From positions 26,999,276 to 27,063,275 of the forward strand of contig OZ023207.1 of NCBI GenBank assembly GCA_963995525.1: a stretch of 64,000 bases of DNA, read 5' to 3'. Shown here piece after piece: positions 11,440 to 55,376 of this stretch. The position numbers were made by a program, and so were the translations under genes. This DNA is from Escarpia spicata. Lineage: Eukaryota > Annelida > Polychaeta > Sabellida > Siboglinidae. The first letter of the stretch is position 1. Every line of letters begins with the position of its first letter. The notes below the pieces were generated by a model that saw only the letters and a program-made list of their open reading frames with translations, had not been told where the DNA came from and did no database searches.

Positions 11440-12253
11440 TATCCCGCCCGTCTGAGGTATGTGTCGATTTTATTTTTAAACATATTCACGCTACTAGCAC
11501 CCACACAATCAGCAGGTAATCTGTTCCATTCATTTACAGTCCTTTGTGAAAATGAAATCTTTCTTATATCCAATCTACTCTGCTTCTTTGCTAATGCAAG
11601 TTCATGTCCTCTAGTCCTTTAATCTTTCTTAACTGAGAAAAACATATTTATATCAATATTTTCATAATCCGTCAATATTTTAAACACTTCTATCTGATCT
11701 CCTCTCAATCTCCTGGTCTCTAATGTTGTTAAACCGCATTTTTTAGGCGTATTTCGTAATTAAGATCCCTCAGATTTGGTATCATTTTAGTTGCTCTCCT
11801 CTGCACTCTTTTTAGCATATATATGTCCTTCCTGCGATATGGCCTCCATGCTTGAATACAATATTCTAAATGAGGCCTAACTATTGTTTTGTACAGCGGT
11901 ATTATTAGCTCTTTTTCCTTATACGTTATGTTTCGCCTAATTAATCCAAGAATTTGATTTCCCTTTGAAGCTGCAATTCCGCACTGCTCTGAAACCTTCA
12001 TATCAGCACTAATGGTTAACCCTAAGTCCCTTTCTTTTACAGTAGTATTTAGTACAGTACCCCCCATTGTATATTCTACTTCTTCGTTCCCATGTCCTGT
12101 ATGGAGGCATTTACATTTCCCAAAATTGAACAGCATTTGCCACTTTTCAGACAATTTGATCAACCTGTCAAGATCATCTTGTAAATGCTGTATATCTTCA
12201 TCACTTTTAATCCTTCTAAATCCTTTTGTATCATCCGCAAATTTCAACAATGC
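11440..12253 (-). mobile_element. 5'-truncated LINE reverse transcriptase fragment (CR1/Jockey-like)
   Basis: The minus-strand frame 12250-11729 starts at the RT active-site box ALLKFADDTKGF and continues through the thumb (SEKWQMLFNFGKCK, ERDLGLTISADMK, LYKTIVRPHLEYCIQAW). After a frameshift near 11730 a second frame carries the C-terminal conserved block (RLRGDQIEVFKILT, VNEWNRLPADCV, LRRAGYT) down to about 11440, with one stop. Everything upstream of FADD is missing, as expected of target-primed 5' truncation. Its 5' end abuts an LTR fragment at about 12250. Confidence 0.85.
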
Positions 12254-12347: not shown

Positions 12348-13479
12348 TACGCATTTCGCCATCTGGGCGCTGGCGAAGGACTGGGACAGATCCAGGGTTG
12401 AACGAGACAGGTTGCCCTGCTGCCAAGAGAATGGCAAATCAAGTAGTGAAGCGTGGAGGGAATTGTTAACGTGGGTTACGTTCCCAAGCTTTTGTGTGTG
12501 TAATATTCAGTGTCCAGAGTGAATGTTCGAGTTTCGAAGAAGCCATGCCGCCACGTCAGCGGTATATTGAGACAACCTTCCGAACGGCCCCAAAGTATTT
12601 GCGTCGATGAGCAATAGTCGCGACGCGCTCTCCCAGCTCGGGCCATCCTCGAACAGCGGTCTCACAGCGACATCGTCAGAAAGCTTGACCGAATGCGACT
12701 CGTAGCGGCCGGCGGTAAACGTATACTGCCAGGCGTCGTCATTCGCGCGAACCCGTTCATCCGACTACTCGATCGTTTGCGACAGGGCAAGACCTCTCGA
12801 TCGAATTCGTAGCGGCCGGCGGTAAGCGTCTACTGCCCGGCTTCGTCTTTCAGTTGAACGTATTCAACTGACCTCGCAATCGTTTGCGAATGTGCGATCA
12901 TTGAACGGACGCGACTCGAGAATTCGCGGCGTACGACGGCAATCGTCAATTGCCCGGCATCATCACTCGTGCGGCCGAGATACACTGTTCTAATTGTATT
13001 CTGAGCTCGGCGTGTTGACTTCAACAAACGTTCGTATTATATTCGAGATGGGACTAGCCCAGTGTAAATGTATATTTTCTGATTGAACGTTTCTATTATT
13101 TGCTGTATTATGATTGATAGTTATATGTGGCTTTGAAGTGAGGTGTTATTACCCTTGAAGTATTCATATATATATATGTTGTAACAGATTACTGAAATGA
13201 GAGTCTGCGAGGACTAGTTATATACTGTGTATTTATATTATGGGAGTTATTCTGACATAACACTTGGCGCCTGGTGTTTGGTCGTATAGTGGTATAATCC
13301 ACCTCAGAAAGGAAGTGGAAATTTATAATTGAAAGATTCAGTGTTATTTTTATTATGTTCTATTAAGATTTGGTTACTGGATTTCTTTTTTCTGTTTATT
13401 TTTGTTCATCGAGATATATACCAAAAGGTAGACATCTTGTAATAAAGTTTATTAAATTGTCCTCGTTCTTTGTTGCTTG
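12348..13479 (+). mobile_element. 1.13 kb insert of unknown identity inside LTR-A
   Basis: The interval interrupts the LTR between two points that are adjacent in the 49 kb copy. It contains diverged tandem units (12701-12960), a PBS-like TGGCGCCTGGTG at 13264 just after GACATAACA, AATAAA at 13441-13446, and no recognisable protein. It may be a small non-autonomous LTR-type element. No repeated ends were seen. Confidence 0.4.
12701..12960 (+). repeat. Three diverged ~107-bp tandem units
   Basis: CGTAGCGGCCGGCGGTAA begins at 12701 and again at 12808, and a weaker third copy (CGCGGCGTACGACGGCAA) starts near 12925. Each is followed by TACTGCC(A/C)GGC..TCGTC-like sequence. The GC content is much higher than the surroundings. 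Confidence 0.6.
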
Positions 13480-13808: not shown

Positions 13809-13855
<47 letters not shown>

Positions 13856-13856
13856 C

Positions 13857-13888
<32 letters not shown>
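13809..13888. repeat. (AT)n microsatellite with AC interruptions
   Basis: Alternating AT with periodic ACATAT interruptions; the Tyr/Ile reading frames over it are artefacts. Confidence 0.97.
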
Positions 13889-14787
13889 GGATTCAATACA
13901 ATATTGTTCATTGTAGTATTTGCTTTACACATAAAGTCAGAGACTGCATTAGTGCCCATGTTTTGACAAGTAACTGTTTTTCAATGGGTCTGTAAAAGGA
14001 GTATAAGACTTGTTTCGTCAAGTCCTCCAGTAGAAATTCATGCAATATATTCCAGTTATCACATTGTAAAATGACCGAGGATAGAGAATGATGAACTTTA
14101 AACATTTCATTGCAAATACAGTGAAATAATTGTACTTTATTTGCAATGAGATATACATTACGTTTACTTCACTCATACAGTTCAGGCATACACTGCGGAC
14201 ATTCTCTGGAGTAGAGGCATTGCTGTGCAGTTGCTCTGGTCGAGGATCATAAATAATTTCCGCAGTTTTCTTCCCACAAATTGCATGCAATCTGCTGGAC
14301 TTGATAGGAGTTCTTTTGTAGGTGACGGAACATCTGGAGGACATGCAGGTCAAGTCAAAATGTACATTCAGCTACATATTTATTAATTGTATTTGCATGT
14401 TAACGCTTTCATTATTTTATTGTTGCTGAGATGTTTCCAAGAGCAGGTCACATTCTTTAAACTACCAAACTTATTTGCGCAACATTGGGATAAACTAACT
14501 GACACATTGGTGCATTGACAATTGCCCCAGTATTTGTACATAGTACTGTAGTAAAGGGCGAACGGTTAATAAGTGGTAACTTACGTGGCTCGCTCTTTAT
14601 GTTCGGTTGCTGCGTTACGTTCTGTGGCCGCCGTTGATCCTAAGCCAGCACATCGGAAGTAGGATGTCTTGCTCGGGTGGATCGGAGTGGCGCTCTTGGT
14701 ATGGGTGTGGTTGGGGTTTATATACAGGGCAGGGGTATTGGTGTGCAGTGGTGTGTGCAAGGGGTAGTGGGTGGGTGGCGATGAACA
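13889..14787. other. Upstream flank of Gypsy-A; no LTR recognised
   Basis: I looked here for a 5' copy of the LTR-like sequence at 23.4-24.0 kb (TATATAAGACACC, CCACGGGTATGGG) and found none. The GT-rich stretch 14690-14780 immediately precedes the gag frame. Confidence 0.4.
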
Positions 14788-16230
14788 GTGCTGCCATCTG
14801 GTGACTACCACAATATTAGCAATGGTGATCCCACGCAGTATCTCCCCACTAGCCGTGCTGAGCGCAGCGTGCGACAGCCACGCACCCCTTACGGATATCG
14901 TCTTCAAGGTGGTAGGAGAGGTGATCACCAGGCTCCCGACGATGCTCGGCGTGGTGGTGCAGAGTCACAATCTCTCAGATACGTGAATCTCGACAAGTTC
15001 GAGGGGAAGATCGGAGAGTGGGACAATTGGTACCACCAATTTGAGTTCCTCGCGACCCACTACAATTGTGACGACCGCGAACTTCCTGTGTCGTGTCTCA
15101 AGGGCCCAGCACTGACAGACCACATGAGCTTCTCTCTAACATAACGTAATGCCTACACACCATGCATTGCTGCTCTCCAGGAGAGGTATGGAACCCGAAG
15201 ACCCGCTCTGATAACGACATTTCGTGCAGAACTGTGTACCGTGCGACAAGAAGAGAGGGAGAGTATGGACACGTTTGGGGACCATGTGTATGCCCTAGCT
15301 AATCAGGCGGCTTACCCAGACATGGTAGATGATGCCACTCTCCAAAGCCTGGCGGTGCCTGCATTTGTGAAGGGTCTCAGGGATAGGAACGCGGCACAAG
15401 AAGCTATGAAGTTCCGTAATCCCAGATCGATTCAGGAAGCAGTGGGGGCAGTGATGCACATCCAGGGCGCGTCACGTATATTCGGTAATCGGGGAGCGTC
15501 CACTACTCGATAGGTTTCTTTCGAGGGTAGGCCTACAGTAGTGGTAAATGAGGCTTTGGCACATATCCCCGCTGATTTGGACTTGCTTCACGGAGTGGTT
15601 AGAAAACTCCAACAGTTCGCTGTTACAGGCAAAGTGGCACCCACGAGAAATGCCTGTTACACTTGTGGAGGTTCTGGCCACCGATCACGCGATCGCGCGA
15701 ACAAGAGGAGGCGCTTGCCATCACCGCTCACCTGCTTCGGGTGTAACGGGAAAGGACATATCGCTCCCGAGGGTTCTAACACATTACGCGGTCGCATGGA
15801 GGTGACAAGGGTAAGTCGTAGACATCAACGTCGGAGCAGTAGCAGCAGCTCTGGCAGCAGCTCTACCAACTCTCAGTCTGATAGTCCCCGTACCCGGATA
15901 AATCATCGACATAGCCCTAGACGGAGCCACCATCGCCAGAATGGTAGCTACCAGGGCGGTCTGAGAAGTCCACGTCGTGGCGACCGCTCACACGGACGAA
16001 GCAAGGGACGTACAGGTGATGCGTGACATACTGATCACAGCCGTGATCGCAATACCTCTCGTGACAATGATCGCGATCGGCCGAGGTATCATGATGGGAG
16101 CAGTGCCAGAGCATATGACTATCGTTCAAGTCCTCGTGATTGCACTGCCTCCTCCTACGCAAGACAGAGGAGGCTGCGAAACCACTGTCAAACTAAATGG
16201 GGTAAATCATGTTGGCCAGGGATCCACCCC
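14788..16230 (+). pseudogene. gag: Gypsy-A gag
   Basis: One frame runs from 14788 to about 16230, broken only by TAA (15142), TAG (15511) and TGA (16024). After a basic N-terminal region comes the capsid part (YVNLDKFEGKIGEWDNWYHQ, SCLKGPAL, ALQERYGTRRPALITTF, SMDTFGDHVYALANQAAY, VPAFVKGLRDRNAAQEAMKF). Two zinc knuckles at about 15656-15780 are degraded: CYTCGGSGHRSRDR lacks the last Cys, as does CFGCNGKGHIAPEG. A Ser-rich then Arg/His/Asp-rich tail follows. Gag forms the particle that packages element RNA; the missing knuckle Cys residues and three stops make this copy inactive. The true start may lie slightly downstream, near 14980. Confidence 0.85.
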
Positions 16231-16770
16231 AGGTAATTGCCAATATGAGGACGGCACTGGTCTTGTGACAAACAAACTGTGTGGTCCAGCCACGGGAACA
16301 GGGTTAGCACAGCTAACTGAACCTGCGATTAGACGCACACAGTTAAGCCCGACAATAGGTCACACATTACTAATCCCAGCGTCCATTCATGCTATAGACA
16401 CGTTATTGGTGGTGGATACTGCTGCACAGATGTCAATGATCAGCCAACCATTTCTGGATTAATTAGACCCGACAATTACCGTATCACGAACAAATAGGGA
16501 TAAAGTACGCAGAACACTGTTCATACATGTATTGTCGCCTCATTAGACAATTACCAATTACCATACAGGGTAAACAGTTCTCACTTGACGTGGCCGTTGG
16601 TCCAATAACGGATAATTTCATAATTGGATTTTCTTTTCTACTAGAACACCGTTGCATTGTTGACGTGGACAGTAGCATTGTCACAACAGATGGCGACACT
16701 GTATGTGCTGTAATGAAGAAAGGCCCTAGTACTTGTTATAATGTGAGTAGGTTTCAAGAAGGGCCCTAGT
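16230..16770 (+). pseudogene. Gypsy-A aspartic protease
   Basis: In the +1 frame relative to gag, a stretch ending at 16462 carries LLVVDTAAQMSMIS. This aligns with the DTGA active-site loop of retroelement proteases, with the Gly replaced by Ala. After a stop (16460-16462) the C-terminal half continues in another frame (QFSLDVAVGPITDNFIIGFSFLLEH, in two parts), the usual IIGxDFL region with Asp replaced by Ser. The protease would cleave Gag-Pol; the DTG change and the breaks argue it is dead. The 40-bp tandem array starts immediately after. Confidence 0.75.
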
Positions 16771-17080
16771 ACTTTTTATAATGTGAATTCGGTTCAAGAA
16801 GGGCCATAGTACTTGTTATAATGTGAGTAGGGTTCAAGGAGGGCCCTAGTACTTGTTATAATGTGAGTAGGGTTCAAGGAGGGCCCTAGTACTTGTTATA
16901 ATGTGAGTACGGTTCAAGAAGGGCCCTAGTACTTGTTATCAAGTGAGTACGGTTCAAGAAGGGCCCTAGTACTTGTTATCAAGTGAGTACGGTTCAAGAA
17001 GGGCCCTAGTACTTGTTATCAAGTGAGTACGGTTCAAGAAGGGCCCTAGTACTTGTTATAATGTGAGTACGGTTCAAGTT
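16721..17080 (+). repeat. 40-bp tandem repeat, 9 units, inside Gypsy-A pol
   Basis: Units start at 16721, 16761 and so on every 40 bases to 17041 (GGGCCCTAGTACTTGTTATA...GGTTCAAG). The first unit is continuous with protease coding sequence (KKGPSTCYNVS) and the last continues into pol (STVQVAYRTVVSPNHR). Eight extra copies add 320 bp, which moves the reading frame by 2; that is exactly the shift seen between the flanking frames. Confidence 0.95.
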
Positions 17081-17182
17081 GCGTATCGCACCGTAGTTTC
17101 ACCTAATCATAGGGCTAATGTTATGGTGAAGTTGACTAACCCCACTCACAATACATATGTTACCATGCCTGAACTAACTGAC

Positions 17183-17584
17183 ACTCTTATCATTCCGTCC
17201 TGTTTTATATGTGGAGGGGTGGGACCTGTTGTTATACAAGTCATAAATTACTCTTCTCATTCCGTCCTGTCTTATCTGTGGAGGGGTGGGACCTGTTATT
17301 ATACAAGTCATAAATGACTCTTATCATTCCGTCCTGTCTTATCTGTGGAGGGGTGGGACCTGTTGTTATACAAGTCATAAATGACTCTTATCATTCCATC
17401 CTGTCTTATCTGTGGAGGGGTGGGACCTGTTGTTATACAAGTCATAAATGACTCTTATCATTCCATCCTGTCTTATCTGTGGAGGGGTGGGACCTGTTGT
17501 TATACAAGTCATACATGACTCTTATCATTCCGTCCTGTCTTATCTATGGAGGGGTGGGACCTGTTGTTATACAAGTCATAAATG
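17183..17584 (+). repeat. 67-bp tandem repeat, 6 units, inside Gypsy-A pol
   Basis: Units begin at 17183, 17250, 17317, 17384, 17451 and 17518 (ACTCTTATCATTCCGTCCTG... ending TACAAGTCATAAATG). The unit encodes IIPSCLIYGGVGPVVIQVIN in the pol frame. Five extra copies add 335 bp (2 modulo 3), which matches the frame change between the flanking reading frames. Confidence 0.95.
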
Positions 17585-18546
17585 ACTCTAATCGTCAGGT
17601 CGTCCTAAGACAAGGGGAAGTATTGACACTGGCTGTCGAACTGGATGAAATAATAGACACGGAGTCTGAGTTGGCTCAAACCTGCATCAATGTCCGTCAT
17701 ACTGGGTTAGACGAGCACATTAAGGGTCGGGACCTACCTTCGTGGGAGGAAGGTAATATAATCCACAATGAAATGTCACCACCCATAGAAGTGTCACTAA
17801 TTCCAGATGCCAGTCTTGATGATGGCCACATTGCCGCAAAACTCAAAGAAGTAGAGTCCCGTACACCAACACACCTGTTTTGGTTAGAAAGAAAGACGGG
17901 GGGGGGGGGGGGTCCGGTACACAGTCGACTACCGAAACTAAATGTGAAGATTATAAAAGATGCACATCCCATCTCCGATAGAAGAGTGCATAGACAGTCT
18001 ATCTGGCAATCTATGGTTCCACACACTAGATATGGCATCAGGGTACTGGCAGATAGAAGTCGATGAGCTCCGATAGAATAGTGCACAGACAATCTCTCTG
18101 GCACTCTATGGTTCCACACACTAGATATGGCATCAGGGTACTGGCAGATAGAAGTCGATGAGCGTGATTGTTACAAAACAACATTCTTAACCAAGTATGG
18201 CCTCTTCGAACATGTCAGGATGGCACAGGGGTTGTGTAGCGCACCAGCCACGTTCCAACGGGTAATGCATCTGGTTTTACGCGGTCTTGCTTGGGACAGG
18301 GTTCTAGTGTATCTAGATGATGTAATTGCACTGGACAGGAGCTTTAACGAGTTACTTGAAAATCGGGAGGTCGTACTCCAGCGATTCAAAGTGCACAATT
18401 TGAAACTGGAACCCAAAAATGCTCTCTATTTACCACACAAATTCTGTTCCTTGGACGCAAAGTATCCCGAGACAACGTTTTGGTTACCAATGACCATGTG
18501 CAATGTGTACAGGATTGGCGTCAACCCAAGAGTGCTCTCCAAGTGA
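17585..18546 (+). pseudogene. pol: Gypsy-A reverse transcriptase
   Basis: The frame to 18066 covers the segment before RT (VVLRQGEVLTLAVELDE) and the start of the RT fingers, disturbed at a 13-G run near 17900. A 95-bp direct duplication follows. The frame from 18127 gives the palm: DMASGYWQIEVDERD, KYGLFEHVRMAQGLCSAPATF and the catalytic box VLVYLDDVIAL with both Asp intact, then LKLEPKNALY. RT copies element RNA into DNA. The domain is complete enough to identify as Ty3/Gypsy, but frameshifts at the G run, at the duplication and near 18490 break it. Confidence 0.88.
17973..18162 (+). repeat. 95-bp tandem duplication in RT
   Basis: 17973-18067 and 18068-18162 are near-identical direct copies (CTCCGATAGAAGAGTGCATA and CTCCGATAGAATAGTGCACA starts), both ending GATAGAAGTCGATGAG. 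The unit spans RT codons for the conserved ASGYWQIEVDE segment. Confidence 0.95.
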
Positions 18547-19340
18547 ATAAATTCACAGGCTTTGTGAAATACCACAGAGAATTCATTCGAGGGTTAGCCG
18601 ACACAATGAAGCCATTGTATGCTTTAACAAAGCCGAGGGCACCCTTCGAGTGGACCGAGAGGTGCGAACAGGCATTCCAGAGACTGAAACGAGACATGAC
18701 AACAACACCCGAGTTGGCATTCCCTAATAATGAAGACCCATTCATTCTGGATACTGATGCTTCCGACACAGAAATAGGAGCGGCACTGTATCAGATTCAC
18801 AATGGTGTAGAGCGGCCAGTCTCGTTTCCATCGCACACCCTACCACCTGCACAGGTACGCTACTGTACTACTAGAAAGGAACTGCTGTCTATAGTGGTGT
18901 TTACACGCCACTATAAACACTACCTGCTCGGCCGTGAGTTCACTGTGAGGAAAGACCACGGGCCACTTACTTGGTTGTTCCGATTCAAACATACTGAGGG
19001 CCAGCTGGGCAGGTGGCTGGAAGAGTTGTCACAGAACTCTATGACAATTCAGCACAGACCAGGTGTTGAGCATACCAATGCCGACGGGCTCTCACGAATC
19101 CCAGAGGAACTCGACCCGTGCAACTGTTACGAAGCGGGCAGGGAAGTATGTACTTTGCCATGTGGTGGCTGCCCATACTATATAAAGCTTCACCCACAAT
19201 GGGGTAGGTTTGAGGAAGAGGTAGATTATGTAGTCCCTCTAGTTGTACGACAAGTAAATAGCCCACATGCGTCCACCAATAAGATAGGTATTGCTGACAG
19301 TGTAACATATGTTGACGCTGAAACCAATTACATGAACTAG
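18480..19340 (+). pseudogene. Gypsy-A RNase H
   Basis: An open frame of about 285 codons. The RT connection (FTGFVKYHREFIRGLADTMK, PLYALTKPRAPFEWTERCEQ) leads into RNase H: FILDTDASDTEIGAAL with the first catalytic Asp, the RKELLSIVVF segment with the Glu, HYKHYLLGREFTVRKDHGPL, and HTNADGLSRIP with the final Asp. It removes template RNA during reverse transcription. This is the least damaged part of the element. The frame stops at 19338-19340 just before the integrase zinc-binding region. Confidence 0.88.
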
Positions 19341-19355
19341 TTCAATGCGCTGGAA

Positions 19356-20412
19356 TTGAGGGACGCCCAACTACTAGATTATGAGTTATGTCCAATAATT
19401 AATTGGATAGAAGGGGAACCCCCAACACAAAACGATTCCCATCTACAGGGAATAGGTACTCGCACCCTGTGGAATTGTAAGAACCGCTTCGCATCTTACA
19501 CGGGGTCCTGTATTATCGGTGGGTGGGTGACACAGGACTGACAGTGCTAAAGCCAGGGGTCCCCCACTCAATGAAATAGGACATTCTTCAAATGACACAT
19601 GACCGACGCATTGACGACACTGGGGTCATGACAAGACCTACGCTAAACTAAAGAGGAGGTTCCTTTGGCCTTCTATGCATACTGTCGACTGTTTGTGGAA
19701 ACGTGTGCTGTGTGTCACCTAAACAAAGGGGGAGGGGCGGTGCGCACAACGAGCACCGTTACTCCACTATGAAGCAGAGGTCCCCGGCGAGCGAGTACAT
19801 CTAGATTTTTTGGGTCCATTTACAACCAGCGAGTCAGGAAATGAATATATCATTATTGTGAACGACCAATTTTCCCGTTGGCTTGAGGTATATGCTCTGA
19901 CGGAACAAACAGCTGTAATCACAGCCAAGATGTTCTTTGAACAATGGATTGTTATGTTTGAGGCCCCACTGCAGGTACACACTGATCAGGGTAGGAACTT
20001 TGACAGCCAGCTGTTCTCGGACCTCTGTAGATTGATGGAGATCACCAAGACACGGACGACACCCTATCGTCACAGTTCAAACGGGCAAGTGGAACGCTAT
20101 AATCAGATGGTTCTATCTTTCTTCAGGTGTTACCTTGATGACAAAGTATCCAGATGGGACGAGTACTTGGCTGTCCTTGGCATGAGTATACGAGCTACGG
20201 TAAGCAGGAGCACTGGTTTCACACCCAATATGCTATTCCTGGGCAGGGAGGTTTGTATGTCAGAAGAAATTATGTTTGGACTCTCCACCATAAATGTGCC
20301 GAGACAAATACCACCAGTCGACCTCTCAGAGTTGATCGACAGACTGAAGCTCACCTTCCTAGCTGCACATAAGAATCTCAGGATGGCCCTGTGTCGTCAA
20401 AAGAGATTATGA
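19356..20412 (+). pseudogene. Gypsy-A integrase
   Basis: The linker and decayed H2C2 zinc-binding part cover 19356-19750 in several frames (RRFLWPSMHTVD, VETCAVCHLNKGG). From about 19790 an open frame gives the DDE core: VHLDFLGPF (first Asp), QVHTDQGRNFDSQLFSDLCR (second Asp), RHSSNGQVERYNQ (Glu), then GFTPNMLFLGREV. All three catalytic acids are present. Integrase inserts the cDNA into the host chromosome. The upstream frameshifts and a stop at 20410-20412 break the polyprotein. Confidence 0.88.
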
Positions 20413-20803
20413 TGCATACGGGAGAGAGAATACGATGTGGGCGGTAGTGGCACAAAGCAAGAAGCTTCTACCAGTGTGGAAGGGCCCATTAATAGTTATA
20501 GAGGTAATAGCCAAGGTTCTATGTCGATTAGCTGGTCGTAGTCGAGAATATGTCAAACACCATGACAAACTCCGTATATGTGAGGATCGAGATAGTCCTC
20601 TCTGGATGCGACGGAAACGACACGTGATCCTCACTGACAAAGCCCAGAATACACAGGCGGTGGCTGACGACGACTTGTTGGACGGAGTGGAAGCATTATT
20701 CCACCCCACCCAATCAACAGCCGAGCAAGCGGCCACTCTCACCACACCGAAAATCACGCGATATGGTCGTAAAGTTACTCGTCCATCTCGGTACAGTGAC
20801 TAA
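20413..20803 (+). pseudogene. Gypsy-A GPY/F module and Pol C-terminus
   Basis: LLPVWKGPLIVIEVI, then VKHHDKLRICEDRDSPLWMR, matches the GPY/F module found after the integrase core in many Ty3/Gypsy elements. The frame ends in TRYGRKVTRPSRYSD, a common Pol terminus. It follows the integrase after one frameshift near 20412-20435. Confidence 0.75.
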
Positions 20804-20934
20804 CTAATATATCTATACTTCGGACATGGAGAGCCCTAGGCGGGAATGGCTCAGGGGAGGCAGGTCAGGTACTCCAGGGAAAACAGGCAATGTTGGGGAC
20901 AATGTTCCCAATGTGACATGTACAACAGGGGGTA

Positions 20935-21456
20935 GTGGACCCCAAGCTTGAGTGTGGCCGTGCTACACGATTTAATTACTACACTGTTACCTACGTGACG
21001 CCGCCCCAGTCACTAGCGTCTGCTCCTGTAGTTAAACAACCAGAAGCCCCCTTGCCCCGCAAACACAAGGTAAATAGGCGAGGAAGGAAGAGGTCACAAC
21101 TTTGGACACCCCCCTCTATGCCAACCCCACCACCGGAACTACATATCACGGTGGCCCCTAGCAGGCAATCCACCCCCACCATGACGAGACCAACACTTTG
21201 GACAGGTGGGACGTATGTGACGCCGCCCCCTGCCAAGCGGGCGCGGTGTGAACGCCGACAGTGCTACGTCTGTGGTGTTATCCCGGCAGACCTGCGTGGT
21301 CATATGGAAGAGTACCATCTTCCCTGGAATGTCCACCCGGACACAGCCTGTTGGTTGTGCGAGAGACCATTCGGGACACCCCAGGCCTTAACGACACACC
21401 TGGACAAACACACCCCCCGAAGAAAAGCGCCAGGCGGAGTTCGCCCGCCACTTTAA
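20935..21456 (+). pseudogene. Zinc-finger protein downstream of Gypsy-A pol
   Basis: The frame begins about 130 bases after the end of pol. A Pro-rich, basic N-terminus (residues 1-105) leads to CYVCGVIPADLRGHMEEYH and then CWLCERPFGTPQALTTHLDK plus His, two C2H2-type fingers; the second has CX2C-X12-HX4H spacing. The frame ends after a C6 run at about 21411, where a 1-base slip would join it to the next frame (EEKRQAEFARHF..., reading into 21473). This suggests one zinc-finger/TatD protein. C2H2 fingers usually bind nucleic acid. Whether this ORF belongs to the retroelement or to a host gene next to it cannot be settled here. Confidence 0.65.
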
Positions 21457-22369
21457 CTCCTGGGCGAATTATATGGCCGCCCACATAGAAGCAACACGCA
21501 AAGTGCTCCAGCAACACACCTTCGAAGAGGCCACAAGTCTCTTCGGTCAGAAGGAGTGGTGCCCCCGAAATATGTACACCAACATCATGTATACGGAGGT
21601 AGCCCGCATAATGGGGCGGCCCATTTCACCTGATGCCATTCGGCTGAGCTCACCGAACCACCCGGTGGCGCTCCAGTATTGGTATAGCCTGACACTGATG
21701 CTGTCGGAACAACCGGCCACCAAGCAGGAGTTGGTCCGTCAGTGTGTGGTCTTCGGACAGCAGCCACGAGAGGCTCCTGAAGTCATCGCGATTGACGCAC
21801 ACTGCCACCTAAAACAACTCCAGCAGAGGGAGATTGCCGCCCAGAACAGTGTTTCCCGGAGAAAGGCAGCGGCTTGTCCTGAAGGGTGTCACTGTTGGTC
21901 ACCGTAATGTGGTTGTGAAAACAACCTATGGGGCTCACCCTCGGCTGGCCAAAACATTCGATAGAAACGCATGGGGCTGGTTATCAGCCATGATCTGCAG
22001 TGTCGACTGCTGCGCGATTTGGGAGTGTGAGCGCGACTCACCTGCTCACTCACTCACTCACTCACTCACTCACTCACTCACTCACTCACTCACTCACTCA
22101 CTCACTCACTCACTCACTCACTCACTCACTCACTCACTCACTCACTCACTCACTCACTCACTCACTCACTCACTCACTCACTCACTCACTCACTCACTCA
22201 CTCACTCACTCACTCACTCACTCACTCACTCACTCACTCACTCACTCACTCACTCACTCACTCACTCACTCACTCACTCACTCACTCACTCACTCACTCA
22301 CTCACTCACTCACTCACTCACTCACTCACTCACTCACTCATTCACTCACTCACTCACTCACTCACTCTC

Positions 22370-22449
<80 letters not shown>

Positions 22450-22862
22450 GAACTGGGGAAGCCGCTCTTCCAGGCGCCGGTCACCCAATGTCGGCAGTTA
22501 TGTGTGAGGCGCTGGCGATCCTTAACCAGAACACCCACCGCCAGCAGAAGATCCTCGTCCACTGCTATACTGGTGACGTGACTAGCTACCACAATTGTGT
22601 TGGGAATTTCCCTAACAGTGTGTTTGGGGTCACCCAAAGGACAACACGAGCGGCGGGTTTTGCGGATGTGGCTCGCCATATGGATCTCGCCCGTCTTGTG
22701 TTGAAAACGGACTCCCACATGCTGTCAAGGGGACACACCAGTGGGCATCATTATGAGGTAGTACGCCACGCCACAAAATTTGCTGTGCACATGAATCTCC
22801 CTGGCTGGGTTCTGCTGAGGATCGCCGCCCTTAACGCAAAGGCATTCTATCAGGTGGTGTAA
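21419..22862 (+). pseudogene. TatD-like metal-dependent nuclease, interrupted by microsatellite
   Basis: In order, the metallohydrolase motifs are IDAHCHL (DxHxH, about 21790); TTYGAHPRLA (GxHP) about 21925; CCAIWECERD, matching the IGE.GLD block with Gly and Leu lost, about 22010; ELGKPLF after the microsatellite, about 22452; KILVHCYTGD (HCFTG) about 22552; and LVLKTDSHML, where the family has ETD(S/A)P, about 22690. This order is that of TatD/TATDN proteins, metal-dependent 3'-5' exonucleases. About 100 unassigned residues precede it, and the zinc-finger frame lies directly upstream. Frameshifts near 21850 and 22470 and the (CTCA)n/(CT)n insertion break it. E-to-K and P-to-H changes also suggest inactivity here. 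Confidence 0.65.
22045..22446. repeat. (CTCA)n then (CT)n microsatellite within the TatD frame
   Basis: (CTCA)n occupies 22045-22364 with one T substitution near 22341 and runs through CTCTCACC into (CT)n at 22373-22446. On the plus strand it lacks stop codons and would read as (Leu-Thr-His-Ser)n and (Ser-Leu)n. It sits between the ECERD and ELGKPLF motifs of TatD. Confidence 0.97.
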
Positions 22863-23354
22863 GGGATGGGGATGAACCGGGTACATTTATACCCACGTGT
22901 ACATTACATTCTATCAGGTGGTGTAAGGGATGGGGATGAACCGGGTACATTTATACCCACTTGTACATTACATTCTATCAGGTGGTGTAAGGGATGGGGA
23001 TGAACCGGGTACATTTATACCCACGTGTACATTACATTCTATCAGGTGGTGTAAGGGATGGGGATGAACCGGGTACATTTATACCCACGTGTACATTACA
23101 TTCTATCAGGTGGTGTAAGGGATGGGGATGAACCGGGTACATTTATACCCACGGGTGCATTACATTCTATCAGGTGGTGTAAGGGATGGGGATGAACCGG
23201 GTACAGTTATACCCACGTGTACATTACATTCTATCAGGTGGTGTAAGGGATGGGGATGAACCGGGTACAGTTATACCCACGTGTACATTACATTATATCA
23301 GGTGGTGTAAGGGATGGGGATGAACCGGGTACATTTAAACCCACGTGTACATTA
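22843..23354 (+). repeat. 64-bp tandem repeat, 8 units, from the TatD stop region
   Basis: Units start at 22843, 22907 and so on every 64 bases to 23291. The first includes the last codons and TAA stop of the TatD frame (CATTCTATCAGGTGGTGTAA) plus adjoining 3' sequence (GGGATGGGGATGAACCGGGT). Variation between units is a few bases. Confidence 0.95.
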
Positions 23355-23379
23355 CATTTTAGTTTTTTTTTTAAATACA

Positions 23380-24030
23380 CCGACAGTTAAATTATCAGCG
23401 GCAATTATACATTGCACCACTGTCTTGGAGAGTTAGAGTTATATCACCGCGGGTACTTGGGTCTGTCAGTACACTAGCACTGGTTTAGTTAAGAATTGTT
23501 GTTATATTATTAGTTCACCACGGGTATGGGAATCTTTTAATGTAATAGTAGGTTAGGGGTTATGGATATTTTATTAGGGTTATAGCTTTTAAAACATAAA
23601 GGGAGGATACCTAGCTACCCCACACAGCGGCACCACCGACCACACCGCCAGTCAACCGTGACCGGCTATATAAGACACCGCCTTCCCAGCGAACGACGCT
23701 TGCTCCTGACCCGCACCGATATGCATCACGCGCAAGACGCAACACAGAGACAACCATCGCCGTGCCGCATATGTACGTAAGTGTTACTACACCATTATTC
23801 ACATACTATGCACGGCGACACAACACACACCTATTTATCGCACACGCACCTCTTCACGAATGCTCGGGACAAGCCTTCTCGAGTCTCCCATTCAGTGTAA
23901 TTAAATTTACAAACAAGGATCAATTCCAGTTCAATTCCAATTCATTTTAATTCAAATCGGCAACGTTAGATGTTTTGTTGTGACTTTTGACTAAATAAAA
24001 GTTTTGTAACTTATAACAAACGGATTACAT
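23380..24030 (+). mobile_element. Candidate 3' LTR of Gypsy-A
   Basis: A purine stretch AAAGGGAGGA (about 23599) is followed by TATATAAG (23667-23674), a strong donor-like AC|GTAAGT at 23777-23782 and AATAAA (23994-23999), then TTTTGTAACTTATAACA. This is the layout of an LTR plus leader. No second copy is present in the window, so exact ends and even LTR status are unproven. Confidence 0.4.
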
Positions 24031-25114
24031 ATAAAATGCATATATATATATATCAATATTAAGTAGAAGAGAAATAACACCGTCCAGCAAATGCAATTAA
24101 GAGACTAATACATTCACAATAAAAAGGAAAATACATACTTGGTTTTACGGGATCAAGAACTGGTCAACTTATTATATTTACAGAACAAGTTGAATGTTGC
24201 TTAGTATTACCGCCTAGCCTCCTCTTTGCTTTGAGGTCTAACCTTGGCGCAGTCAGCTCGGATGTCTCAACTTGTGTACTTCATGTAATCTTCAACTTTC
24301 AAGTCAGTGTCTGCAATTAGCAAAACATGGGTGATCTGTTATTTAACTGGACTAAATTATTAATCCTAGGGTTAATAACTTAGATAAATTAAAGGGGGGT
24401 TGCTTGTTTAATACAAGTAGACATATATTATCAGGTGCATATATAGTCCATCCCTGGCCGACCGATGATGATGGAGTTAGCTAAATAAGTTGTACATTGT
24501 CCACAATTTGGCCAGAAGCTTAGTACCAAGCCAAATTCAAAATAATAAATAGTAATAGCTGCTGTTTACAAAATGGATGTATTGTTTAAAAAGTTACACA
24601 TTTCATGAACATAACTTTCAAACTGCACAGGATTGTGGGCGTTATATAAGTCTGAAATGTGGACTTATGAAATTAATGTATCGACTTTGATCGAGGTGCA
24701 GCACAGATAAAAGGGTAGTTATAACAATACAATTGAGGTAACCAAGGACTAAACCATATACTTGTTATGTAGGGAGTTTGCTCTGGATGGCAGTCTTGTT
24801 GAATCTAGTTGTGCTTCGTGGACTCACTCACTATACCTAGATTGCTAACATCAGATGGCATCACTTTATGTAGACAATTCATGCCATAAAAGCCTGTTAT
24901 TACATCATGGAGTTTCTTGATAATTGAAATACGTTATTAATAGTTTTATAGAATGTAAAGGTATCCTAAAATAGAAGTGCACGAAAAGCAGCTCTCAGGC
25001 CTACAGGATTTCAACTTTCTGTTGTGGTACTTTTAGTTATAACTGCATCAATCAAGGCCGACTGTCGAATCTATCAATGTCACACACTGTGTTAGACACT
25101 TCAACACAACCTGC
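24031..25114. other. Intergenic, no recognisable feature
   Basis: AT-rich, with a short (TA)n near 24040; no coding or repeat structure was recognised. Confidence 0.5.
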
Positions 25115-26240: not shown

Positions 26241-27553
26241 GTTTCTGCGCATGCGCTGTAGGCAGCTTAAATCAATAATTTATTTTAAAACCAGTTAAGG
26301 TAATTGAGTGTGGAGAATGGATGGTTCATGATGGCTGTTTGAAATGCCATGGGGCTTTCTATTTCAGTTATTTGTAATGGGATCATGTTCCTTGTACGAA
26401 CTACTCGGGGGGTAGAAGGGGAAGACAGTTGCATTGATGCGGCACCTAGGGGACAGGTAGTGACCACGGTTTCTTAACTGTGTTAGAAGGCCTGGCAGGT
26501 GCTAATGTTGATAATGTTATTTAAAATGTTATAAAATGTCATGGCTTGTTTGATAATGCTCTGTCTTTCAGGAGTTGGCCATCCTAGGGCGGTTACAAGG
26601 TCTGCTGAGTTGGTTTGGCATCTATGATCGTTTTTAACAAATCTGGCTGCACATTTTTGTATTTTTTCAAGATGCTTGATTTGGGTGGCAGTGTGTGGGT
26701 TCCATGTGGGAGATGCATACTCAAGTTTTTGTCGGATTAGCATGTTATGCGCTATTTCTTTGACTTCGGGTTTGCCCCAAGGGTTCTTTTAATCATGCCT
26801 AGGACTTTTGAGGATTTGGAAGCTATGTCGGTGATGTGACTTGCCCATGTTAATTTATAATCAAATTTTACTCCGAGATACGCATGACCAGATACTGTAC
26901 AATGTGCCATGCTGAAGAGTGAATATGAGTGCAGTCTGGGTTTAATTTGGTTTATTATTGAGAGATGGACACATTTAGAAATGTAAAATTCCATTTGCCA
27001 TTTGTCAGACCATGTTTGGAGTTGGATCAGATGATTTTGCGATATATAATGCTGTTGTCTGCAAAGGGGCGTACGGGAGATTGGATGTTTTCATTTATGT
27101 CATTTATGTAGAGTAGGAAGAGGACTGGTCCCAGGACTGTTCCCTGGGAACTCCATATGTAACATCTATTATATCTGACAGAACTCCATTTACTGAGATT
27201 CTCTGTTTACGGTTTGACAGAAATGATCTGATCCAGTTTTGTGTGTTTCCAGTTATCCCGTAGGAGTTTAGTTTGGAAATTGGATAGGAGGCGTTTTGCA
27301 AAATCAAGCAGGATTGCATTTATTTGTGTCTTGTTGTCCATAGCAGTCATCCAGTCAAGGACTGTCTCGATGAGTTGAGATTCACAAGACAGTCCTGACT
27401 GGAATCCATGTTGAAAGTGGAGGATGATGTTATGTTTGTGCAAGTGTTGCACACATTGCTTACAATTATGTGTTCCCAGACTTTACGGCGGATGTATGTT
27501 AGTGATATTGGTCTGTAGATTGCGGGATCAGATTTTTTATTTTTTTTGGTAAT
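26240..27553 (-). mobile_element. LINE-B, 3' half: RT palm, thumb and C-terminus
   Basis: On the minus strand, from the array edge downward: KKNKKSDPAIYRPISLTYI, HGFQSGLSCESQLIE, DNKTQINAILLDFAK, LNSYGITGNTQNWIRSFL, RISVNGVLSDIIDVTYGVPR, then the active-site box read as FADN (27054-27065) where functional enzymes have FADD. VSGHAYLGVKFDYKLTWASH and KLEYASPTWNPHT (thumb) follow, and the C-terminal NMIPLQITEIE segment ends near 26285. It is a non-LTR reverse transcriptase of the APE-endonuclease (Jockey/CR1) kind. The FADN box, several stops and frameshifts mean it is inactive. The missing upstream RT part lies beyond the satellite at 44.2 kb. Confidence 0.88.
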
Positions 27554-30069
27554 GGTGTTACTAGGGCTTGGAGCGAGTCATCGGGGAGTTTGCATGTGTT
27601 GTGCGACTGTTGGAAGATGTGTGTAATGGTGTTACTAGGGCTTGGAGCCAGTCATCAGGGAGTTTGCATGTGTTGTGCGACTGTTGGAAGATGTGTGTAT
27701 TGGTGTTACTAGGGCTTGGAGCCAGTCATCAGGGAGTTTGCATGTGTTGTGCGACTGTTGGAAGATGTGTGTAATGGTGTTACTAGGGCTTGGAGCCAGT
27801 CATCAGGGAGTTTGCATGTGTTGTGCGACTGTTGGAAGATGTGTGTAATGGTGTTACTAGGGCTTGGAGCCAGTCATCAGGGAGTTTGCATGTGTTGTAC
27901 GACTGTTGGAAGATGTGTGTAATGGTGTTACTAGGGCTTGGAGCCAGTCATCATGGAGTTTGCATGTGTTGTACGACTGTTGGAAGATGTGTGTAATGGT
28001 GTTACTAGGGCTTGGAGCCAGTCATCAGGTAGTTTGCATGTGTTGTGCGACTGTTGAAAGATGTGTGTAATGGTGTTACTAGGGCTTGGAGCCAGTCATC
28101 AGGGAGTTTGCATTTGTTGTGCGACTGTTGGAAGATGTGTGTAATGGTGTTACTAGGGCTTGGAGCCAGTCATCAGGGAGTTTGCATGTGTTGTGCGACT
28201 GTTGGAAGATGTGTGTAATGGTGTTACTAGGGCTTGGAGCCAGTCATCAGGGAGTTTGCATGTGTTGTGCGATTGTTGGAAGATGTGTGTAATGGTGTTA
28301 CTAGGGCTTGGAGCCAGTCATCAGGGAGTTTGCATGTGTTGTGCGACTGTTGGAAGATGTGTGTAATGGTGTTACTAGGGCTTGGAGCCAGTCATCAGGG
28401 AGTTTGCATGTGTTGTACGACTGTTGGAAGATGTGTGTAATGGTGTTACTAGGGCTTGGAGCCAGTCATCTGGGAGTTTGCATTTGTTGTGCGACTGTTG
28501 GAAGATGTGTGTAATGGTGTTACTAGGGCTTGGAGCCAGTCATCAGGGAGTTTGCATTTGTTGTGCGACTGTTGGAAGATGTGTGTAATGGTGTTACTAG
28601 GGCTTGGAGCCAGTCATCAGGGAGTTTGCATGTGTTGTGCGACTGTTGGAAGATGTGTGTAATGGTGTTACTAGGGCTTGGAGCCAGTCATCAGGGAGTT
28701 TGCATGTGTTGTGCGACTGTTGGAAGATGTGTGTAATGGTGTTACTAGGGCTTGGAGCCAGTCATCAGGGAGTTTGCATGTGTTGTGCGACTGTTGGAAT
28801 ATGTGTGTAATGGTGTTACTAGGGCTTGGAGCCAGTCATCAGGGAGTTTGCATGTGTTGTGCGACTGTTGGAAGATGTGTGTAATGGTGTTACTAGGGCT
28901 TGGAGCCAGTCATCAGGGTGTTTGCATGTGTTGTGCGACTGTTGGAAGATGTGTGTAAATGTGTTACTAGGGCTTGGAGCCAGTCATCAGGGAGTTTGCA
29001 TGTGTTGTGCGACTGTTGGAAGATGTATGTAATGGTGTTACTAGGGCTTGGAGCCAGTCATCAGGGAGTTTGCATGTGTTGTGCGACTGTTGGAAGATGT
29101 GTGTAATGGTGTTACTAGGGCTTGGAGCCAGTCATCAGGGAGTTTGCATGTGTTGTACGACTGTTGGAAGATGTGTGTAATGGTGTTACTAGGGCTTGGA
29201 GCCAGTCATCATGGAGTTTGCATGTGTTGTACGACTGTTGGAAGATGTGTGTAATGGTGTTACTAGGGCTTGGAGCCAGTCATCAGGTAGTTTGCATGTG
29301 TTGTGCGACTGTTGGAAGATGTGTGTAATGGTGTTACTAGGGATTGGAGCCAGTCATCAGGGAGTTTGCATGTGTTGTGCGACTGTTGAAAGATGTGTGT
29401 AATGGTGTTACTAGGGCTTGGAGCCAGTCATCAGGGAGTTTGCATGTGTTGTGCGACTGTTGGAAGATGTGTGTAATGGTGTTACTAGGGCTTGGAGCCA
29501 GTCATCGGGGAGTTTGCATGTGTTGTGCGACTGTTGGAAGATGTGTGTAATGGTGTTACTAGGGCTTGGAGCCAGTCATCTGGGAGTTTGCATGTGTTGT
29601 GCGACTGTTGGAAGATGTGTGTAATGGTGTTACTAGGGCTTGGAGCCAGTCATCAGGGAGTTTGCATGTGTTGTGCGACTGTTGGAAGATGTGTGTAATG
29701 GTGTTACTAGGGCTTGGAGCCAGTCATCAGGGAGTTTGCATGTGTTGTACGACTGTTGGAAGATGTGTGTATTGGTGTTACTAGGGCTTGGAGCCAGTCA
29801 TCAGGGAGTTTGCATTTGTTGTGCGACTGTTGGAAGATGTGTGTAATGGTGTTACTAGGGCTTGGAGCCAGTCATCAGGGAGTTTGCATGTGTTGTGCGA
29901 CTGTTGGAAGATGTGTGTAATGGTGTTACTAGGGCTTGGAGCCAGTCATCAGGGAGTTTGCATGTGTTGTGCGATTGTTGGAAGATGTGTGTAATGGTGT
30001 TACTAGGGCTTGGAGCCAGTCATCAGGGAGTTTGCATGTGTTGTGCGACTGTTGGAAGATGTGTGTAAT

Positions 30070-32141
30070 GGTGTTACTAGGGCTTGGAGCCAGTCATCGG
30101 GGAGTTTGCATGTGTTGTGCGACTGTTGGAAGATGTGTGTAATGGTGTTACTAGGGCTTGGAGCCAGTCATCAGGGAGTTTGCATGTGTTGTGCGACTGT
30201 TGGAAGATGTGTGTAATGGTGTTACTAGGGCTTGGAGCCAGTCATCAGGGAGTTTGCATGTGTTGTGCGACTGTTGGAAGATGTGTGTAATGGTGTTACT
30301 AGGGCTTGGAGCCAGTCATCAGGGAGTTTGCATGTGTTGTACGACTGTTGGAAGATGTGTGTAATGGTGTTACTAGGGCTTGGAGCCAGTCATCTGGGAG
30401 TTTGCATTTGTTGTGCGACTGTTGGAAGATGTGTGTAATGGTGTTACTAGGGCTTGGAGCCAGTCATCAGGGAGTTTGCATGTGTTGTGCGACTGTTGGA
30501 AGATGTGTGTAATGGTGTTACTAGGGCTTGGAGCCAGTCATCAGGGAGTTTGCATTTGTTGTGCGACTGTTGGAAGATGTGTGTAATGGTGTTACTAGGG
30601 CTTGGAGCCAGTCATCAGGGAGTTTGCATGTGTTGTGCGACTGTTGGAATATGTGTGTAATGGTGTTACTAGGGCTTGGAGCCAGTCATCAGGGAGTTTG
30701 CATGTGTTGTGCGACTGTTGGAAGATGTGTGTAATGGTGTTACTAGGGCTTGGAGCCAGTCATCAGGGTGTTTGCATGTGTTGTGCGACTGTTGGAAGAT
30801 GTGTGTAAATGTGTTACTAGGGCTTGGAGCCAGTCATCAGGGAGTTTGCATGTGTTGTGCGACTGTTGGAAGATGTATGTAATGGTGTTACTAGGGCTTG
30901 GAGCCAGTCATCAGGGAGTTTGCATGTGTTGTGCGACTGTTGGAAGATGTGTGTAATGGTGTTACTAGGGCTTGGAGCCAGTCATCAGGGAGTTTGCATG
31001 TGTTGTACGACTGTTGGAAGATGTGTGTAATGGTGTTACTAGGGCTTGGAGCCAGTCATCATGGAGTTTGCATGTGTTGTACGACTGTTGGAAGATGTGT
31101 GTAATGGTGTTACTAGGGCTTGGAGCCAGTCATCGGGGAGTTTGCATGTGTTGTGCGACTGTTGGAAGATGTGTGTAATGGTGTTACTAGGGCTTGGAGC
31201 CAGTCATCAGGGAGTTTGCATGTGTTGTGCGACTGTTGGAAGATGTGTGTAATGGTGTTACTAGGGCTTGGAGCCAGTCATCAGGGAGTTTGCATGTGTT
31301 GTGCGACTGTTGGAAGATGTGTGTAATGGTGTTACTAGGGCTTGGAGCCAGTCATCAGGGAGTTTGCATGTGTTGTACGACTGTTGGAAGATGTGTGTAA
31401 TGGTGTTACTAGGGCTTGGAGCCAGTCATCTGGGAGTTTGCATTTGTTGTGCGACTGTTGGAAGATGTGTGTAATGGTGTTACTAGGGCTTGGAGCCAGT
31501 CATCAGGGAGTTTGCATGTGTTGTGCGACTGTTGGAAGATGTGTGTAATGGTGTTACTAGGGCTTGGAGCCAGTCATCAGGGAGTTTGCATTTGTTGTGC
31601 GACTGTTGGAAGATGTGTGTAATGGTGTTACTAGGGCTTGGAGCCAGTCATCAGGGAGTTTGCATGTGTTGTGCGACTGTTGGAATATGTGTGTAATGGT
31701 GTTACTAGGGCTTGGAGCCAGTCATCAGGGAGTTTGCATGTGTTGTGCGACTGTTGGAAGATGTGTGTAATGGTGTTACTAGGGCTTGGAGCCAGTCATC
31801 AGGGTGTTCGCATGTGTTGTGCGACTGTTGGAAGATGTGTGTAAATGTGTTACTAGGGCTTGGAGCCAGTCATCAGGGAGTTTGCATGTGTTGTGCGACT
31901 GTTGGAAGATGTATGTAATGGTGTTACTAGGGCTTGGAGCCAGTCATCAGGGAGTTTGCATGTGTTGTGCGACTGTTGGAAGATGTGTGTAATGGTGTTA
32001 CTAGGGCTTGGAGCCAGTCATCAGGGAGTTTGCATGTGTTGTACGACTGTTGGAAGATGTGTGTAATGGTGTTACTAGGGCTTGGAGCCAGTCATCATGG
32101 AGTTTGCATGTGTTGTACGACTGTTGGAAGATGTGTGTAAT
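30070..32141. repeat. Higher-order repeat: 14-unit (1,036 bp) block in tandem
   Basis: The order of variant units from about 30070 to 31105 is repeated from about 31106 to 32141 at an offset of exactly 14 x 74 = 1,036 bp; for example the GTAAATG variant unit recurs at 30750 and 31786. A related block lies upstream at 25-26 units' distance (28900 versus 30750). Confidence 0.85.
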
Positions 32142-43800: not shown

Positions 43801-44203
43801 AGTTTGCATGTGTTGTGCGACTGTTGGAAGATGTGTGTATTGGTGTTACTAGGGCTTGGAGCGAGTCATCAGGGAGTTTGCATGTGTTGTGCGACTGTTG
43901 GAAGATGTGTGTATTGGTGTTACTAGGGCTTGGCGCCAGTCATCAGGGAGTTTGCATGTGTTGTGCGACTGTTGGAAGATGTGTGTATTGGTGTTACTAG
44001 GGCTTGGCGCCAGTCATCAGGGAGTTTGCATGTGTTGTGCGACTGTTGGAAGATGTGTGTAATGGTGTTACTAGGGCTTGGAGCCAGTCATCAGGGAGTT
44101 TGCATGTGTTGTGCGACTGTTGGAAGATGTGTGTAATGGTGTTACTAGGGCTTGGAGCCAGTCATCAGGGAGTTTGCATGTGTTGTACGACTGTTGGAAG
44201 ATG

Positions 44204-54030: not shown

Positions 54031-54059
54031 TTGACAGCATCAAACAAGACACTACAACT

Positions 54060-54475: not shown

Positions 54476-54521
54476 TGATTTAAAACGTGCTGATCCACAA
54501 CGGTTTGACACTATCGGGAAC

Positions 54522-55366: not shown

Positions 55367-55376
55367 CGACGACAAG

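What the first reader, a model, noticed from the sequence alone, without database searches (positions are those of the whole stretch)
20935..22862. Zinc-finger plus TatD-like nuclease carried behind a Ty3/Gypsy pol
Seen: 130 bp after a recognisable Gypsy Pol terminus, on the same strand, two C2H2 fingers are followed by TatD motifs in correct order (DxHxH, GxHP, GE-like block, ELGKPL, HCYTG, KTDS), all before LTR-like TATA and AATAAA signals. Known: Ty3/Gypsy elements may carry an extra gene, usually env-like, in this position; TatD proteins are metal-dependent 3'-5' exonucleases. Inference: the retroelement has captured a DNA-binding nuclease, perhaps acting on cDNA ends or host defence. I do not know of a named element with this content. 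A chance neighbour or a host gene next to an insertion remains possible.
Basis: partly seen in the sequence, partly recalled or inferred. Interest (0 to 1): 0.88.

Follow-up and report, generated by a model that had tools for sequence, protein, structure and literature searches.

The report
Decayed retrotransposon with TatD nuclease gene
A broken-down jumping gene in what looks like an invertebrate genome seems to carry, besides its usual copying machinery, an extra gene for a nuclease of the TatD type with finger-like motifs, which would be unusual cargo if copies elsewhere confirm it.

Summary
The observation largely holds. Shortly after the stop of a Ty3/Gypsy pol, on the same strand, lie two C2H2-like fingers, a middle region with no known domain, and TatD motifs in order. 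Pfam TatD_DNase matches the C-terminal half (E 4.9e-9). The gene is broken here: its pieces lie in three frames, a 404-bp microsatellite splits it, and one catalytic histidine cannot be read. Pol is in pieces too.

It is probably not a chance neighbour. Two other proteins resemble the middle region (70% and 65%). One of them (P0001) and a close integrase relative (P0059, 76%) are each reported on a contig of exactly 10,477 bp, so pol and ZF-TatD probably sit together in a second copy. This is inferred from equal length; the contig could not be fetched.

No LTR pair was found, a test for selection was inconclusive, and the home genome did not complete. The closest known case is the DEDDy 3'-5' exonuclease ORF3 of bdelloid rotifer LTR elements (PMC5408684). 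I read this as a new variant of that kind, with a different nuclease.

The parts
15514..16026 (+). gag-like piece with CCHC zinc knuckles
   Evidence: PF00098 E 6.4e-7
18082..18546 (+). reverse transcriptase piece of pol
   Evidence: PF00078 E 1.7e-16
18360..19340 (+). RNase H piece of pol
   Evidence: PF17919 E 9e-31, PF17917 E 4.5e-29
19723..20412 (+). integrase piece of pol
   Evidence: PF00665 E 1.3e-10; 332 relatives at E <= 1e-8 among 437 candidates
20363..20803 (+). C-terminal end of Pol with its own stop (RPSRYSD-stop)
   Evidence: 70% identical over 119 residues to the end of P0024, which ends in the same seven residues
20826..20951 (+). possible start of the third gene (first ATG after the Pol stop, frame 0); inferred only
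   Evidence: translation; no relative found covers it
20917..21456 (+). third gene, N-terminal piece (frame 1): proline-rich, basic clusters, two C2H2-like fingers at 21262-21318 and 21349-21411
   Evidence: finger 2 sub-threshold Pfam match E 0.016; spacing by eye; coordinates
21392..21907 (+). third gene, middle piece (frame 2): region with no known domain, then TatD motif DAHCH at 21794-21808
   Evidence: relatives P0001 (70%) and P0002 (65%), each covering about half of the piece
21813..22043 (+). TatD N-terminal half (frame 0): GAHP 21930-21941 and GE-like WECERD 22020-22037
   Evidence: motifs in order; no Pfam match by itself
22045..22448 (+). CTCA/CT microsatellite that splits the TatD region
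   Evidence: Tandem Repeats Finder
22450..22862 (+). TatD C-terminal half: ELGKPL (frame 1) then HCYTG 22560-22574 and KTDS 22704-22715 (frame 0), stop at 22860-22862
   Evidence: PF01026 E 4.9e-9 for 22455-22859
22843..23358 (+). 64-bp tandem repeat (8 copies) grown from the end of the third gene, its stop codon included
   Evidence: and sequence
23667..23999 (+). TATATAA (23667-23673) and AATAAA (23994-23999), possible remains of a 3' LTR; unproven
   Evidence: no partner repeat found

Best explanation
This is the decayed copy of a Ty3/Gypsy retrotransposon whose family carries a third gene after pol. That gene codes for a protein with two C2H2-like fingers, a middle region of unknown kind and a TatD-type metal-dependent nuclease. 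Shown: the order gag, RT, RNase H, integrase, Pol stop, then ZF-TatD on one strand; the TatD C-terminal half; the breaks in both pol and ZF-TatD. Inferred: that the pair travels together (equal contig length of two relatives), that the gene is expressed as a separate protein, and that it acts in the nucleus through its fingers and basic N-terminus. Most likely action when intact (inferred, about 0.3 on its own): the fingers hold the protein on nucleic acid of the element, and the TatD part trims 3' ends or removes RNA-DNA hybrids or stray cDNA during reverse transcription and integration.
For: TatD_DNase match above cut-off and Gypsy domains in order on one strand. Pol has its own stop, with the last seven residues shared by P0024, so the next gene is separate. 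Two relatives of the middle piece on other contigs, with DAHCHL shared. P0059 (integrase, 76% to the window over 51% of the query) and P0001 (ZF-TatD, 70% over 51%) both have a 'longest contig' of 10,477 bp, one contig each, source ena. My estimate of chance: six other hits of the 120 listed have contigs between 9,288 and 11,464 bp, so about 0.003 exact matches to one given length are expected among the 120; only 8 of the 120 are 69% identical or more, and P0059 is one of them. Pol and ZF-TatD both lie in pieces in several frames. A third gene for a 3'-5' exonuclease in this place has precedent (PMC5408684, abstract and passages).
Against: No LTR pair found, so the unit is not bounded. The 10,477-bp contig was not read; equal length is not proof of one contig. 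The second ZF-TatD relative (P0002, contig 223,267 bp) has no integrase partner among the 120 of 332 hits listed. The comparison with neutral drift did not separate the middle piece from drift (P 0.24 against P0001, 0.21 against P0002). The same test on pol gave mixed results (integrase: 0.14 P0003, 0.24 P0059, 0.013 P0010, 0 of 300 P0024; Pol C-terminus: 0.06 P0024, 0.81 P0003), so its power is low. The search with the TatD C-terminal half found no relative (0 of 176 candidates). One catalytic histidine cannot be read. In the rotifer precedent the authors report no significant departure from neutrality for the extra ORFs (PMC5408684, passage).
Confidence: 0.67

Rival explanations
1. The ZF-TatD is a host gene or host pseudogene (an invertebrate TatD family with finger domain) beside which, by chance, a Gypsy element inserted; the element's own 3' end has been lost.
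For: No LTR pair encloses the two genes. The right edge of the microsatellite (...CTCTCTCAG before GAACTGG) resembles a splice acceptor, and the short ORFs of P0001 and P0002 (118 and 96 aa) could be exons.
Against: Same strand, with the first ATG 22 bp after the Pol stop; co-occurrence of the two relatives on a contig of equal length; the motif pieces are contiguous apart from the microsatellite; no other ZF-TatD copy was found in the window (tblastn, E up to 1).
Confidence: 0.23
2. A one-off or local capture: one Gypsy copy recombined with a neighbouring ZF-TatD gene, and the compound unit was multiplied by segmental duplication rather than by retrotransposition.
For: The region is full of tandem growth and only two other relatives of the middle piece were found.
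Against: P0001 and P0002 differ from the window by about 30-35% and from each other by 13% (10 of 79 residues), and lie on contigs of different length, which fits an old dispersed family better than a recent local duplication.
Confidence: 0.08
3. The TatD likeness is spurious.
For: The N-terminal half has no Pfam match by itself, the reading frame is broken, and in NCBIfam an unrelated sigma-factor model also reaches E 2.1e-4.
Against: PF01026 E 4.9e-9, above its cut-off; TIGR00010 (TatD family) E 5.8e-6, though below its own cut-off; weak PDB matches to 3e2v (E 0.033) and 1yix (E 0.22), both TatD-family proteins as I recall; motifs in the right order on both sides of the microsatellite.
Confidence: 0.02

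Closest known systems
Vesta and Juno LTR retrotransposons of bdelloid rotifers with DEDDy 3'-5' exonuclease ORF3 (Rodriguez, Kenefick and Arkhipova 2017, PMC5408684; abstract and passages seen)
   Same: A retrovirus-like LTR element of an invertebrate with a third gene after pol that is homologous to 3'-5' exonucleases instead of an envelope protein.
   Different: DEDDy (RNase D-like) family, TatD not in the paper's main text (0 occurrences); here a TatD-type nuclease with C2H2-like fingers. That paper describes full-length elements with intact ORFs; here a relic without LTR pair.
Orchid Ty3/Gypsy elements with an AlkB RNA demethylase (PMC9289625; abstract and two sections seen)
   Same: Ty3/Gypsy element with an extra gene for a nucleic-acid enzyme of host type.
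   Different: A dioxygenase, not a nuclease; activity shown in vitro there; plants.
Burro giant Gypsy-like elements of planarians (PMC6431247; passages seen)
   Same: Invertebrate Gypsy-like element with captured host-like domains.
   Different: Domains of apoptosis and ubiquitin pathways inside a giant polyprotein; words beginning with TatD or nuclease do not occur in the main text held.
Cellular TatD nucleases (PF01026), e.g. TATDN2, linked to R-loop resolution in germ cells (PMC12709183; abstract seen)
   Same: Metal-dependent nuclease domain of the same Pfam family.
   Different: Host gene, not borne by an element; whether it has like fingers and middle region was not compared here.

Membership tests
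Ty3/Gypsy LTR retrotransposon | RT, RNase H, integrase in this order | tested here: met
   Pfam matches at 18082-18543, 18360-19337, 19723-20409
Ty3/Gypsy LTR retrotransposon | gag with CCHC knuckle upstream | tested here: met
   PF00098 E 6.4e-7 at 15514-16023
Ty3/Gypsy LTR retrotransposon | two LTRs bounding this copy | tested here: not met
   No LTR-like direct repeat between the stretches upstream of gag and downstream of pol that were compared; the copy may be truncated
Ty3/Gypsy LTR retrotransposon | target-site duplication | not tested
   Ends of the element not found
TatD nuclease (PF01026) | profile match above the curated cut-off | tested here: met
   36.4 bits against 27, C-terminal half only
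TatD nuclease (PF01026) | all metal-binding residues (two His of DxHxH, Glu, third and fourth His, Asp; list recalled) | tested here: not met
   DAHCH, WEC, HCYTG and KTDS are there, the third His after ELGKPL is not readable; the gene is broken
C2H2 zinc finger | profile match above the curated cut-off | tested here: not met
   Best 15.7 bits against 25; spacing of both fingers fits by eye
LTR element with exonuclease ORF3 (bdelloid Vesta/Juno type) | 3'-5' exonuclease-like gene after pol, inside the LTRs | tested here: inconclusive
   TatD gene after pol, probable second copy, but no LTRs
LTR element with exonuclease ORF3 (bdelloid Vesta/Juno type) | DEDDy-type nuclease | tested here: not met
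   Only TatD is matched among nucleases in the third gene by Pfam

The most novel reading that the evidence does not exclude
A Ty3/Gypsy lineage of invertebrates has kept, as a standing third gene, a DNA-binding ZF-TatD nuclease that acts in its life cycle (trimming cDNA ends, removing RNA-DNA hybrids, or destroying rival cDNA or host defence intermediates). It would be the first retroelement that I know of to carry TatD, and together with the DEDDy ORF3 of rotifers would show that unrelated 3'-5' exonucleases have been taken up into the same slot more than once.
Probability: 0.37. Interest if true: 0.72.

Novelty: new variant of a known kind. Interest (0 to 1): 0.52.

Why it matters
Fixation of extra domains in LTR elements is considered a rare event (PMC9289625, abstract), and each case points to a step of the element's life or of its conflict with the host. 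A second, unrelated 3'-5' exonuclease in the place where envelope genes usually sit would suggest that such elements profit from an end-trimming or hybrid-removing activity, which could be tested with a naturally intact gene. It would also warn that some TatD-like genes annotated in animal genomes may be pieces of mobile elements.

Tried and rejected
LTR pair: searched by blastn at two settings and by local alignment against shuffles. One search found one match that beat 199 of 200 shuffles (461-bp candidate) and 100 of 100 (wider candidate), an AT-run (13840-13876 with 24026-24059), rejected as simple sequence that the shuffles do not keep. One search gave short matches at its loose limit, the best on the same strand 36 bp at 81% (14030-14064 with 24870-24905, E 0.017), and one inverted match of 39 bp (E 8.6e-4); too short for LTRs. 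Third gene as part of the Pol polyprotein: rejected, since Pol has its own stop whose last residues a relative shares. Intron instead of microsatellite: the right edge looks like an acceptor, but no donor or transcript was examined; left open. Selection: the comparison with random drift (1000, 300 or 500 runs per pair) did not separate the third gene from drift and gave mixed results on pol, so it says nothing either way. Homologues: TatD C-terminal piece in the protein collection, 0 of 176 candidates; phage records, none; viral contigs, none in five scans; prokaryote genome contigs, none in two scans. The finger piece was not sent to the protein collection (all 3 searches used). Middle region against PDB: nothing below E 0.69. 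Literature, ten searches: TatD with Gypsy, retrotransposon and mollus (0 papers); TatD with Ty3 (0); TatD with zinc finger, transposon, integrase and invertebrate (0); TATDN2 with LTR retrotransposon (2; in one, PMC5408686, the single mention is a TATDN2 retrocopy that holds a human microRNA; the other, a wrasse genome, was seen as listing only); TatD with LTR (8, listing only; by title none is on retrotransposons that carry TatD). Broader searches: 241 papers, 20 listed, no TatD in those; 1,766, 30 listed, TatD in one, PMC5408686; 585, 20 listed, no TatD in those. TatD does not occur in the main text held of PMC6431247, PMC8556966, PMC10294476, PMC2774666 or PMC5408684. Only openly licensed PubMed Central papers are in that library, and Repbase was not searchable.

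Full report
What is there. The stretch 15514-20803 (+) holds pieces of a Ty3/Gypsy element: CCHC knuckles (PF00098 E 6.4e-7), reverse transcriptase (PF00078 E 1.7e-16), RNase H (PF17919 E 9e-31) and integrase (PF00665 E 1.3e-10). They lie in several frames, and two minisatellites (16716-17078 and 17183-17593) stand between the gag and RT pieces, so this copy is dead. Pol ends in RPSRYSD-stop at 20803. A relative, P0024, ends in the same seven residues, and P0010 and P0008 in similar ones, so Pol has a natural stop here.

The third gene. Behind the Pol stop, on the same strand, come a proline-rich and basic N-terminus, two C2H2-like fingers (21262-21318, 21349-21411), a middle region, and TatD motifs in the right order: DAHCH 21794, GAHP 21930, the GE-like WECERD 22020, ELGKPL 22450, HCYTG 22560, KTDS 22704, stop 22862. 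Pfam's TatD_DNase matches the C-terminal half with E 4.9e-9, above its cut-off. NCBIfam's TatD-family model TIGR00010 overlaps it (E 5.8e-6) but is far below its own cut-off, and an unrelated sigma-factor model also scores E 2.1e-4 there, so the weaker NCBIfam matches mean little. Comparison with PDB chains gives only weak matches (3e2v E 0.033, 1yix E 0.22). The fingers are below Pfam's cut-offs (best 15.7 bits against 25; only the second is picked up), and the N-terminal TatD half has no match by itself, so these parts rest on motif and order, and for DAHCHL on its presence in both relatives.

State of the gene. Fingers are in frame 1, the middle in frame 2, GAHP and the C-terminus in frame 0, ELGKPL in frame 1. 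A CTCA/CT microsatellite of 404 bp (22045-22448) sits between the GE-like block and ELGKPL, and a 64-bp unit that includes the stop codon has grown to 8 copies (22843-23358). Of the six metal-binding residues that I recall for TatD proteins, five can be placed and the third histidine cannot. I do not expect a working protein from this copy.

Does it belong to the element? Two other proteins match the middle piece: P0001 (70%, 118 aa, contig 10,477 bp) and P0002 (65%, 96 aa, contig 223,267 bp), the only 2 of 26 candidates that passed. They are 87% identical to each other (69 of 79 residues). The integrase piece has 332 relatives at E <= 1e-8 among 437 candidates, 120 listed. One of the 8 listed hits with 69% identity or more, P0059 (76%), is on a contig of 10,477 bp, again from ENA. 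Six other listed hits have contigs between 9,288 and 11,464 bp, so by my estimate about 0.003 exact matches to a given length in that range are expected among all 120. I take this as good but indirect evidence that pol and ZF-TatD stand together in a second copy. P0002 has no such partner in the list, but 212 of the 332 hits were not shown and only proteins of a limited length are candidates.

What speaks against. I found no direct repeat that brackets the two genes. TATATAA at 23667 and AATAAA at 23994 could belong to a 3' LTR, but nothing found upstream of gag resembles that stretch beyond an AT-run. The home genome, which could have decided the matter, did not answer (ten calls). Viral and prokaryote contig collections gave no relative, as one would expect for an animal element. 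The comparison with neutral drift is inconclusive: P 0.24 and 0.21 for the middle piece; for integrase 0.14 (P0003), 0.24 (P0059), 0.013 (P0010) and 0 of 300 (P0024); for the Pol C-terminus 0.06 (P0024) and 0.81 (P0003).

Where it comes from. Named integrase relatives in the list include molluscs (Pecten maximus, Pinctada imbricata, Mytilus galloprovincialis, Plakobranchus ocellatus) at 42-54% identity, but also a fish (Fundulus heteroclitus, 46%). A mollusc or another aquatic invertebrate is my guess; the species is not known.

Mechanism, inferred. TatD proteins are metal-dependent nucleases; [quoted passage not shown] With fingers and basic clusters, an intact form could enter the nucleus and bind nucleic acid. 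Trimming of 3' ends or removal of RNA-DNA hybrids during reverse transcription and integration is the simplest use; action on host defence or on rival cDNA is possible. None of this is shown.

Comparison. [quoted passage not shown] the authors suggest a role in 3'-end processing of element RNA, say that activity is yet to be demonstrated, and see no significant departure from neutrality. The present case is alike in layout but uses a TatD-type nuclease with finger-like motifs. I found no paper that names a retroelement with TatD (and the papers checked), in a library limited to openly licensed papers. I therefore rate it a new variant of a known kind, at 0.67 that the gene belongs to the element family and lower for any given function. 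On checking I lowered this by 0.01, and the novel case likewise, because the drift test has more mixed results than I had first written.

Noticed in passing
window 54024-56961 (+): A second Gypsy-like pol, recognised by eye from its reading frames, holds a 79-bp tandem repeat at 54633-54873. tblastn with the first element's integrase and RNase H pieces did not match it, and the ZF, middle and TatD pieces match nothing else in the window.
   Followed up: partly
window 27549-44203 and 57824-62805: Very long minisatellites: a 74-bp unit repeated 225 times and a 36-bp unit repeated 138 times.
   Followed up: no
window 16716-17078, 17183-17593, 17973-18163, 22843-23358, 54633-54873: Tandem repeats of 40, 67, 95, 64 and 79 bp lie inside or at the edge of retroelement genes, as if tandem growth were common in this genome.
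   Followed up: no
window 12349-13476: An insert of about 1.1 kb seems to interrupt a repeat whose uninterrupted copy lies at 49280-49482 on the other strand; it holds a TGGCGCC stretch near 13267 that resembles a primer-binding site (recalled).
   Followed up: partly
P0061, P0070, P0071, P0074, P0075, P0077, P0081, P0085, P0121: 9 of the 120 listed integrase relatives carry a PHD finger (PF00628) in the same protein, another extra domain in this group of elements.
   Followed up: no
window 11729-12253 (-), 26483-27577 (-), 47112-49246 (+): Reading frames that look by eye like pieces of non-LTR retrotransposons.
   Followed up: no
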